Part shown: piece after piece, positions 19,782-21,650 of the stretch
Numbering within the stretch: the first letter of the stretch is position 1
Layout: each line of letters begins with the position of its first letter
DNA from: Verrucomicrobiota bacterium
Lineage (GTDB): Bacteria > Verrucomicrobiota > Verrucomicrobiia > Limisphaerales > UBA11358
Direction: 5' to 3'
Assembly: GCA_021324235.1 (NCBI GenBank)
Contig: JAJPJM010000078.1
Coordinates: 1 to 37,135 of the forward strand
Length of the DNA: 37,135 nt
The notes under the pieces: generated by a model
Told to the model about the DNA's origin: nothing
The model's database searches: none
The model's input: only the letters and a program-made list of their open reading frames with translations
Translations under genes and position numbers: made by a program

Positions 19782-21650
19782 TCAAACCTGTGGTTGATGT
19801 GCCGGCGCGGGCACCGCCGGTTCGCCGGCCACAGGCGCCTTCCACGACTCGATTCTTTCGATGCGGTGCCGGTGGGTGGCGCCTTGGAATTCAAATTCAA
19901 CCTCGTCGCCGACCTTGCGGTTCAACAACGATTGCGCCACGGGTGAAAGGTAGCTGATCACGCCCTTCTCCGGGTCGGAATCCCAGGCGCCCAGGATGGT
20001 GAAGGACTCCGACTGATTGGCTCCCAGGTCGACGGCCTGGACGATGGTGCCGATGCCGACGGCGTCGATCTTGGCATTGGAAAAATCCGTGCCGCGCGCG
20101 CGCGAAAGCTGCGTTTCCAGTTCCTCTTTGCGGCGCATGAGGATTTTCTGCATCTCCTTGGCCGCCTTGTATTCGTGGTTTTCGCTGAGGTCGCCATAAC
20201 TGCGGGCGATGGCGATTTCCTTTGAGTTGGCGGGAATCTTCTTTTGCACGAGTTCCTGATATTCACCACGGCGGCGCTCGAGGCTTTCCCAGGAAACCAG
20301 GAGTGCGCTGTCCTGCCGGGTCTGTTCGCCGCTGACGAGCGATTGCACGGCGGGATGTGCCTTGACCAGCCGCGCCAGCAGCGAGCGTTTGTCCATGTCA
20401 TCGAACACGGGCGAAAATTGCAATGCCCGCGTCAGGTCCTTGACGACCTCAATGTCGGCGGATGCGGTCAGTTCGGCGATCAATTCGTGGTCGTCGAGAA
20501 TGAACTCGCGCAGGCGGTTCGAGCGTTTTTCGTTGAACTGGTCGCGTTCCATCGCCGTCAGCATGGCGCGAAACACCTCCGGCCCCAGAATGTCGGCGTA
20601 AGCGTCGCTGCGGTCACGGGCCAGCCAGAGCAGCAGTTCCGTGCTGGCCGTGTGTTGATTGATGAGGCGGGCGAGCGTTTCCTTGAGCAAATCCATTTTG
20701 CCCTCCTGAATCAGCAGGGTGGCAAACTCGCGGCACAGCTTGGCGGAGACAATGTTGAGCGAGCCGCGTAAAATTTCGTGCCAGCGCTCGGGGTTCGCCG
20801 TTTTGTACGATTCCAGCGCGCGATGATGTTTGGCCGCGGGAATCAATTCCAGCACCGGACCGAATTTGACGTTGTCCTGGACCCAGATTTGCGTGTCGGT
20901 GATTTCATCGGTGGCGGGTGGCAGTCCGGCCACGGCGCGCAGTTCGTCGCGCGCAAAAATGGCTTCGAGGGCGACCGCGGGTTGCGTCCGTTGATGGGAG
21001 GCAATGTCCGCGTTCAGCGCCGGAATAATCTCGTTGGCGGCCGCCTGTTTGTCCGCCAGGTCCGCCGCGCTCTTGAGGAATTCCCCGACCACCACCACGC
21101 GCGCCCGCAAACCCTTGGCCGCGCGAAAATCCGCCAGCAACCGGTTTTGCAACGTCGTTTCCTGTTCCTGGAAAATGACCGGCTCGGTTTTTTTCAGCGG
21201 CACGACAAAGTGCCCGTCCTTTTTCATTTCGCGCCGGGCGGTTTCCCACCATTTCCGCCAATCGTCACGAATGACATCGGGCACGAGCGCCTGCTGGATT
21301 TGGTCCGCCGTCGCCCGGCCGCCGTAACTGTTCAGCACCAGCTTGATCAAATCCAGATGCCGGGCGGCCATCTGGCGCAAACCCTCCAGGTCCATGGCTT
21401 TGCGCGCGAGGATATGGTCCTTGGAAATCGGCTTCAGCGACTCCGCCGCAAACGCCAGGTCCATCGTATGTCCCGGTTTGCCCGGAAAATCGATGGTGAA
21501 CCGCGCAAAAACCGTGTCGACGGTCTTGATCCGCCCGAAGCCCCAACTGCGGTGCATGCAAAAACCGCCGGTGGCCAGAAGCGTCAGCGGTTCGACGTGG
21601 CGGCCTTCGATCTTGCCGGCCGCGGCTAATTTTTCAAATTCCTCTCTCAT
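19782..21650 (-). CDS. GreA-type transcript cleavage factor with long N-terminal extension
   Basis: The last ~170 residues of this 622-residue protein are a complete GreA. The coiled-coil finger begins near residue 450, with the tip GDLSENHEY at 486-494; Asp487 and Glu490 match the two acidic residues that GreA inserts into the RNA polymerase channel. An FKBP-like domain follows (GTIVQAVDLGANQSESFTILG, then KVGDEVEFEFQG). The first ~450 residues are soluble and helical, and I do not recognise a domain in them. GreA normally has ~158 residues. Chlamydia also carries an extra-long GreA (~715 residues), so this may be a shared PVC-group architecture. A Pro/Ala tail follows the FKBP-like domain. 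The gene is divergent from rsmB and monocistronic. Confidence 0.88.
   Translation of the reverse strand: MREEFEKLAAAGKIEGRHVEPLTLLATGGFCMHRSWGFGRIKTVDTVFARFTIDFPGKPGHTMDLAFAAESLKPISKDHILARKAMDLEGLRQMAARHLDLIKLVLNSYGGRATADQIQQALVPDVIRDDWRKWWETARREMKKDGHFVVPLKKTEPVIFQEQETTLQNRLLADFRAAKGLRARVVVVGEFLKSAADLADKQAAANEIIPALNADIASHQRTQPAVALEAIFARDELRAVAGLPPATDEITDTQIWVQDNVKFGPVLELIPAAKHHRALESYKTANPERWHEILRGSLNIVSAKLCREFATLLIQEGKMDLLKETLARLINQHTASTELLLWLARDRSDAYADILGPEVFRAMLTAMERDQFNEKRSNRLREFILDDHELIAELTASADIEVVKDLTRALQFSPVFDDMDKRSLLARLVKAHPAVQSLVSGEQTRQDSALLVSWESLERRRGEYQELVQKKIPANSKEIAIARSYGDLSENHEYKAAKEMQKILMRRKEELETQLSRARGTDFSNAKIDAVGIGTIVQAVDLGANQSESFTILGAWDSDPEKGVISYLSPVAQSLLNRKVGDEVEFEFQGATHRHRIERIESWKAPVAGEPAVPAPAHQPQV

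What the first reader, a model, noticed from the sequence alone, without database searches (positions are those of the whole stretch)
19782..21650. GreA fused to a ~450-residue unknown region
The cleavage-factor part is intact, with Asp487 and Glu490 at the finger tip, but the protein is about four times the usual size. Chlamydial GreA is similarly long. A large soluble extension on a factor that enters the polymerase channel could recruit another machine or tune backtrack rescue in the PVC group.
Basis: partly seen in the sequence, partly recalled or inferred. Interest (0 to 1): 0.6.

Follow-up and report, generated by a model that had tools for sequence, protein, structure and literature searches.

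The report
GreA carrying a UvrD-type polymerase anchor
In this phylum of bacteria the protein that rescues stalled RNA polymerase (GreA) is four times its usual size, and its long front part contains a small module of the kind that the repair helicase UvrD elsewhere uses to hold on to RNA polymerase, which these bacteria's own UvrD lacks.

Summary
The ORF at 19782-21650 (minus strand) encodes 622 aa with an intact GreA (450-602; Asp487/Glu490 invariant in 71 relatives) behind ~450 residues that single-sequence Pfam does not name. It is not an artefact: the Gre N-domain occurs in 240 of 241 sampled genomes of the phylum, in long frames wherever listed. It is the only canonical GreA of its genome. 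The long fusion is already on record as NCBIfam PRK06330 and PRK14720, and residues 1-441 alone match both models. What those models leave unnamed is resolved here. Residues 29-75 are a UvrD/PcrA-type Tudor domain, shown by structure search, profile comparison and conservation of the residues with which PcrA binds RNA polymerase (K712 is replaced by His). Residues 76-160 are winged-helix-like and 167-440 an alpha-solenoid. In this phylum UvrD helicases lack their Tudor (0/241), RpoB lacks the motif that Tudor binds (0/29), and all ten above-cut-off DUF3553/Tudor matches lie in long GreA. Best reading: GreA carries its own polymerase anchor, which keeps the cleavage factor near the secondary channel. 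Anchoring and its target are inferred, not shown. Classed as a new variant of a known kind.

The parts
21567..21650 (-). residues 1-28: two N-terminal helices; other branches of the phylum and the two NCBIfam families carry longer N-terminal extensions here
   Evidence: AF2 model; profile alignments starting at model position 134/305
21426..21566 (-). residues 29-75: UvrD/PcrA-type Tudor (small beta barrel); motif H33-R-S-W36-G-F-G-R-I ... I-D-F55 ... H61-x-M63
   Evidence: Foldseek top hits are UvrD/PcrA C-terminal Tudors; hhalign prob 92.3, score 31 v. max 14.3 in 60 shuffles; Pfam DUF3553/CarD RID/PcrA tudor in relatives
21171..21425 (-). residues 76-160: helical, winged-helix-like domain with the conserved W(K/R)xWW...VPxKKTEP signature
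   Evidence: AF2 model pLDDT >90 for most of the domain; weak Foldseek hits to winged helices (histone H1, FoxP3, Z-alpha, RPA2); conservation
20331..21152 (-). residues 167-440: alpha-solenoid (helical-repeat) arm
   Evidence: AF2 model, all-helical, pLDDT mostly >90; only weak TPR/HEAT-like Foldseek hits
20304..20330 (-). residues 441-449: flexible linker (low confidence 443-447)
   Evidence: AF2 pLDDT <50 at 443-447
20091..20303 (-). residues 450-520: GreA N-terminal coiled-coil finger
   Evidence: PF03449, 64.1 bits; Foldseek to 1grj, 2p4v, 9a7t
20178..20195 (-). residues 486-491 GDLSEN: finger tip with catalytic Asp487 and Glu490
   Evidence: G486, D487, E490, N491 invariant in 71 sequences
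19848..20066 (-). residues 529-601: GreA C-terminal (RNAP-binding) domain
   Evidence: PF01272, 69.4 bits

Best explanation
The gene encodes the cell's only canonical transcript-cleavage factor, in a polymerase-anchored form. The C-terminal GreA enters the secondary channel and, with Asp487/Glu490, activates cleavage of the backtracked RNA (inferred from the family). The N-terminal Tudor domain (29-75), of the kind UvrD/PcrA uses to bind RNA polymerase, docks on a second site of the polymerase, most likely the beta lobe/SI1 side. The winged-helix-like domain may touch DNA, and the solenoid is the arm between anchor and finger. Tethering would raise the local concentration of GreA on elongating polymerase and might direct it to stalled complexes. 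In this lineage the same type of anchor is absent from UvrD, the helicase that pulls polymerase backwards. Shown: the fusion, its conservation, the Tudor relationship, the conserved contact residues, the missing Tudor in UvrD and the missing motif in RpoB. Inferred: docking, its site, and the effect on rescue.
For: Intact, invariant catalytic tip and both Gre domains. Long frame conserved across the phylum down to 18% identity. Model of residues 1-167 (pLDDT 94) matches UvrD/PcrA Tudors: 7egt_B TM 0.73 (target-normalised), 7egs_B 0.69 (E. coli UvrD CTD bound to the RNAP lobe), 5dma 0.63, 9dqs 0.59-0.62. Profile comparison with four UvrD/PcrA Tudors: prob 92.3, score 31 against at most 14.3 for 60 column shuffles and 8.5 reversed. 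In that alignment the PcrA residues whose mutation severely reduces RNAP binding (H681, W684, K712, L714; PMC5397179), plus cage F705, fall on H33, W36, H61, M63 and F55, conserved in 56, 58, 56, 59 and 63 of 71 sequences. An unbiased scan of 241 genomes with Pfam DUF3553, described as a UvrD-like Tudor in PMC6511836, gave 10 above-cut-off matches, all in long GreA genes (coordinates). A secondary-channel factor can reach the beta lobe/SI1: TraR does (PMC6970531).
Against: Foldseek E-values for the 47-residue barrel are not significant alone (best 0.11). The window protein itself has no Pfam Tudor hit; only relatives do. The contact Lys of PcrA is His here. The RpoB motif that PcrA's Tudor binds (TGE hairpin) is absent in this phylum (0/29), so the docking site cannot be the canonical one. 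Tudor domains can bind other partners (PcrA's also binds UvrB). Domain orientation is uncertain (pTM 0.62). No binding or cleavage data exist.
Confidence: 0.58

Rival explanations
1. The extension recruits a partner other than core polymerase: the Tudor reads a hairpin motif on a repair or translation protein and the solenoid is the docking platform, so GreA brings that partner to stalled polymerase.
For: UvrD-type Tudors also bind UvrB (PMC8318588; 7egt is a UvrD CTD-UvrB complex). Alpha-solenoids are common protein-binding platforms. The canonical RpoB motif is missing.
Against: The UvrB of these genomes also lacks the helicase interaction motif (0/29 strict). No partner gene sits next to greA in the window: by reading, the neighbours are rsmB-like and phosphatidylserine-pathway genes.
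Confidence: 0.22
2. The extension regulates GreA in cis: the Tudor, winged helix and solenoid fold back on the finger and keep it out of the channel until a signal or DNA binding releases it.
For: Short, low-confidence linker between arm and finger (443-447) and uncertain orientation (pTM 0.62). As sole GreA of the genome it may need control.
Against: No conserved ligand pocket or switch found. The most conserved barrel residues include those used for partner binding in UvrD, not the buried core alone.
Confidence: 0.12
3. Plain GreA with a lineage-specific stabilising extension that has no separate function.
For: The middle of the extension (166-300) is the least conserved large segment (mean information 1.70 v. 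2.89 for the finger).
Against: Extension kept in essentially all genomes of the phylum and homologous to two other long-GreA families; contact-type residues conserved although sequences go down to 18% overall identity.
Confidence: 0.06

Closest known systems
NCBIfam NF004969 / PRK06330 (718 aa), 'transcript cleavage factor/unknown domain fusion protein' (chlamydial GreA, from memory)
   Same: Same order of parts; N-terminal region alone is homologous (2.2e-25) and so is the Tudor-containing first 85 residues (2.3e-4)
   Different: Longer N-terminus (match starts at model position 134); whole-protein score 197 against an equivalog cut-off of 697
NCBIfam NF011309 / PRK14720 (906 aa), 'transcription elongation factor GreA' (spirochaetal, from memory)
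   Same: Homologous over residues 24-603 (3.4e-82); Tudor part alone 1.7e-11
   Different: About 300 extra N-terminal residues; score 277 against a cut-off of 714
E. coli GreA/GreB (PDB 1grj, 2p4v)
   Same: C-terminal 450-602 is a complete GreA with the catalytic acidic tip
   Different: No extension; about 158 aa
PcrA/UvrD C-terminal Tudor domain (PDB 5dma, 7egs, 7egt, 6yi2, 9dqs; Pfam PF21196) and DUF3553 (PF12073)
   Same: Fold, motif GxxxxHxxWGxGxI...IxF...(K/H)x(L/M), RNAP-contact positions
   Different: Sits at the N-terminus of GreA instead of the C-terminus of a helicase; K712 replaced by His; PF21196 itself below threshold
CarD / Mfd RNA polymerase interaction domain (PF02559)
   Same: Tudor-like fold and the G..v.H..G.G motif; weak Pfam hits in 3 of 33 relatives
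   Different: Profile comparison with the Mfd RIDs of related genomes gives only 4% probability

Membership tests
GreA/GreB transcript cleavage factors | GreA_GreB_N and GreA_GreB domains over curated cut-offs | tested here: met
   64.1 and 69.4 bits, cut-offs 24.5 and 26.9
GreA/GreB transcript cleavage factors | acidic residues at the finger tip (DxxE) | tested here: met
   D487, E490 in 71/71
GreA/GreB transcript cleavage factors | NCBIfam TIGR01462 greA cut-off | tested here: not met
   127.6 bits against 139; the model was made for short GreA
GreA/GreB transcript cleavage factors | stimulates RNA cleavage by backtracked polymerase | not testable with these tools
   needs an in vitro assay
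Long GreA fusions (NCBIfam PRK06330, PRK14720) | homologous N-terminal region outside the Gre domains | tested here: met
   residues 1-441 alone: 2.2e-25 and 3.2e-34
Long GreA fusions (NCBIfam PRK06330, PRK14720) | equivalog cut-off of either model | tested here: not met
   197 v. 697 and 277 v. 714 bits: a relative, not a member as those models define it
UvrD/PcrA Tudor domains | Tudor fold closest to UvrD/PcrA CTD | tested here: met
   best Foldseek hit 7egt_B, TM 0.73; hhalign 92.3% with shuffle control
UvrD/PcrA Tudor domains | Pfam PF21196 match of the window protein | tested here: not met
   no hit; two relatives at E 0.13-0.16
UvrD/PcrA Tudor domains | RNAP-contact residues H681, W684, K712, L714 | tested here: inconclusive
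   His, Trp and Leu (as Met) retained, Lys replaced by a conserved His
UvrD/PcrA Tudor domains | binds RNA polymerase | not testable with these tools
   needs pull-down; canonical RpoB TGE hairpin is absent in this phylum
CarD / Mfd RID | profile similarity to PF02559-type domains | tested here: not met
   4% probability v. Mfd RIDs of the same order; three relatives match Pfam below cut-off

The most novel reading that the evidence does not exclude
An anchor swap: in Verrucomicrobiota, and perhaps in every lineage with long GreA, the UvrD-type Tudor that elsewhere docks the backtracking helicase on RNA polymerase has been lost from UvrD, together with its RpoB and UvrB target motifs, and is carried instead by the anti-backtracking factor GreA. 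The balance between pulling polymerase back and rescuing it would thereby be reversed.
Probability: 0.3. Interest if true: 0.72.

Novelty: new variant of a known kind. Interest (0 to 1): 0.55.

Why it matters
Long GreA has been on record as a cleavage factor fused to an 'unknown domain', and my searches of the held paper library found no study of the extension. Naming the N-terminal module as a UvrD-type polymerase-binding Tudor turns that into testable questions: does the fusion tether GreA to polymerase, where does it dock, and have these bacteria given up UvrD-driven backtracking for anchored GreA rescue? If the same holds for the chlamydial and spirochaetal long GreAs, it would bear on how those groups deal with stalled transcription.

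Tried and rejected
Assembly artefact or frame fusion: rejected. A CarD/Mfd-type RID as closest relative: rejected in favour of UvrD type. PDB sequence search with the N-terminal profile: only insignificant hits, though the UvrD1 Tudor 9dqs aligned in register at E=1. Whole-chain Foldseek: only the Gre part significant, solenoid only weakly TPR/HEAT-like. Plasmid records: no relative of the extension. IMG/VR viral contigs: eight hits, matching the Gre part only. Chlamydial, spirochaetal and planctomycete genomes could not be reached: the single genome-contig scan returned the 80 best relatives, all verrucomicrobial where the record names the group, and genome searches were centred on this phylum. 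Literature: no open paper on the N-terminal region of long GreA, and none pairing GreA with Tudor.

Full report
OBSERVATION. The minus-strand frame 19782-21650 encodes 622 aa. It is open for only 629 codons from stop to stop, so the start can hardly move. Pfam finds only the two Gre domains, 452-519 and 529-601, both well over their cut-offs. The best PDB sequence match is E. coli GreA. The tip is ARSYGDLSENHEY, and G486, D487, E490, N491, A497 and G554 are the only columns invariant in 71 sequences, the furthest 18% identical to the window protein.

NOT AN ARTEFACT, AND NOT A ONE-OFF. The 80 best relatives returned from 84,980 species genomes all carry the long frame. In 241 genomes sampled over the phylum, GreA_N is found in 240, and every frame listed is at least 486 aa and usually 610-830 (the list was cut). 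A profile of residues 1-441 alone matches 159 of 241. An iterated profile also finds the divergent forms among the twenty I fetched by place, including ones the first profile missed, although in some of those the match covers only the C-terminal half. In our genome no second GreA_N exists. The other GreA_C match, 159 aa on contig C62, lacks the tip motif.

WHAT THE EXTENSION IS. The extension alone matches two curated long-GreA models, PRK14720 (906 aa) and PRK06330 ('transcript cleavage factor/unknown domain fusion protein'), at 3.2e-34 and 2.2e-25. The first 85 residues alone match at 1.7e-11 and 2.3e-4. By memory these are spirochaetal and chlamydial; I could not verify this here. So the fusion is known and shared beyond this phylum, but its domain was unnamed. 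The whole-protein score stays far under both equivalog cut-offs, so I call it a relative, not a member.

AlphaFold2 on the 71-sequence alignment gives mean pLDDT 91 (pTM 0.62): two helices, a small beta barrel (29-75), a helical domain with a beta wing (76-160), an all-helical arm (167-440), a loose linker (443-447), then GreA. Folded alone, residues 1-167 reach pLDDT 94 and pTM 0.83. In a PDB search of that model the first hit is the T. thermophilus UvrD C-terminal domain (7egt_B, TM 0.73 by target length, 28% identity). The E. coli UvrD C-terminal domain bound to the RNA polymerase lobe (7egs_B, 0.69), 6yi2, 5dma and 9dqs also appear, and the second domain hits winged helices such as histone H1 and FoxP3. 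E-values are poor, as expected for 47 residues, so I sought independent evidence. (a) Pfam, scanned with 33 relatives one by one, puts DUF3553 first (10 members, best 1.7e-4), then CarD/TRCF RID, with PcrA/UvrD tudor close behind. DUF3553 has been described as a UvrD-like Tudor (PMC6511836). (b) Profile-profile comparison with four PDB UvrD/PcrA Tudors gives 92.3% probability and score 31; 60 column shuffles reach at most 14.3 and the reversed profile 8.5. Against the Mfd RIDs of related genomes it is only 4%. (c) In that alignment H33, W36, F55, H61 and M63 fall on PcrA H681, W684, F705, K712 and L714. Single mutations of H681, W684, K712 or L714 severely reduce RNA polymerase binding (PMC5397179). 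Here the positions are kept in 56, 58, 63, 56 and 59 of 71 sequences, with Lys replaced by His and Leu by Met. (d) A scan of 241 whole genomes with DUF3553 gives ten matches over the cut-off, all inside long GreA genes (the two not placed were checked).

WHAT IS MISSING ELSEWHERE IN THE GENOME. PF21196 (UvrD/PcrA Tudor) rings in 8 of 14 control genomes but in 0 of 241 of this phylum. UvrD-like helicases are present, and the C-termini I read end shortly after the helicase core, with no Tudor motif. PcrA's Tudor binds a hairpin motif [VIL]Dxx-TGE-[VIL][VILT] in RpoB SI1 and in UvrB (PMC8318588). E. coli RpoB has it (IDESTGELI, position 302). In 29 RpoB of the phylum it is absent, although the hairpin itself aligns in 28 of them (own: DAVDEEKGLVVARAFEP); UvrB lacks it too (0/29 strict). 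So both halves of the UvrD contact are gone here, and the anchor type survives on GreA. This also means that the GreA Tudor cannot use the canonical motif; Lys to His at the contact site fits a changed partner. That is a suggestion, not a demonstration.

MECHANISM. GreA works in the secondary channel (established). The beta lobe/SI1 lies within reach of secondary-channel factors: TraR contacts it (PMC6970531). I therefore propose that the Tudor docks on the beta-lobe side, the solenoid spans the distance and the finger is delivered into the channel, so that rescue needs no fresh encounter. The winged helix may contact DNA. Only the parts list, its conservation and the absence of the UvrD contact are shown; docking and effect are inferred.

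NOVELTY. The fusion is already catalogued, so this is not a new kind of protein. Naming the anchor and finding that UvrD lacks it in this phylum is, as far as the held literature shows, not described. Limits: one phylum surveyed, MAG-rich sampling, no complex modelling, and no experiment.

Noticed in passing
L002 1495-1974 (minus strand), own genome contig C62: 159-aa paralogue with only a GreA C-domain (25.9 bits on its own, just under the Pfam cut-off) and an N-terminal part reading ...SKAENKYDTRGLEASYLARGQ..., without the Asp of the Gre tip; lies next to a glmS-like gene.
   Followed up: partly
L196 and L189-L217 (RpoB lobe region): The RpoB SI1 hairpin is kept in this phylum but its TGE helicase-interaction triad is lost in every genome where it could be aligned (28 of 29).
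   Followed up: yes
L159-L188 (UvrD/PcrA-like helicases): Two types of UvrD-like helicase; the tails read end shortly after the core without a C-terminal Tudor; PF21196 absent in 241 genomes.
   Followed up: yes
G030 (99% complete genome, phylum sample): The only one of 241 genomes with no GreA_N match at all.
   Followed up: no
phylum sample: About fifteen genomes carry two or three GreA_N copies, many in one family (f5); whether the extra copies are short GreA was not examined.
   Followed up: no
L133-L140: Eight IMG/VR viral contigs encode Gre-like proteins related to the finger region only.
   Followed up: no
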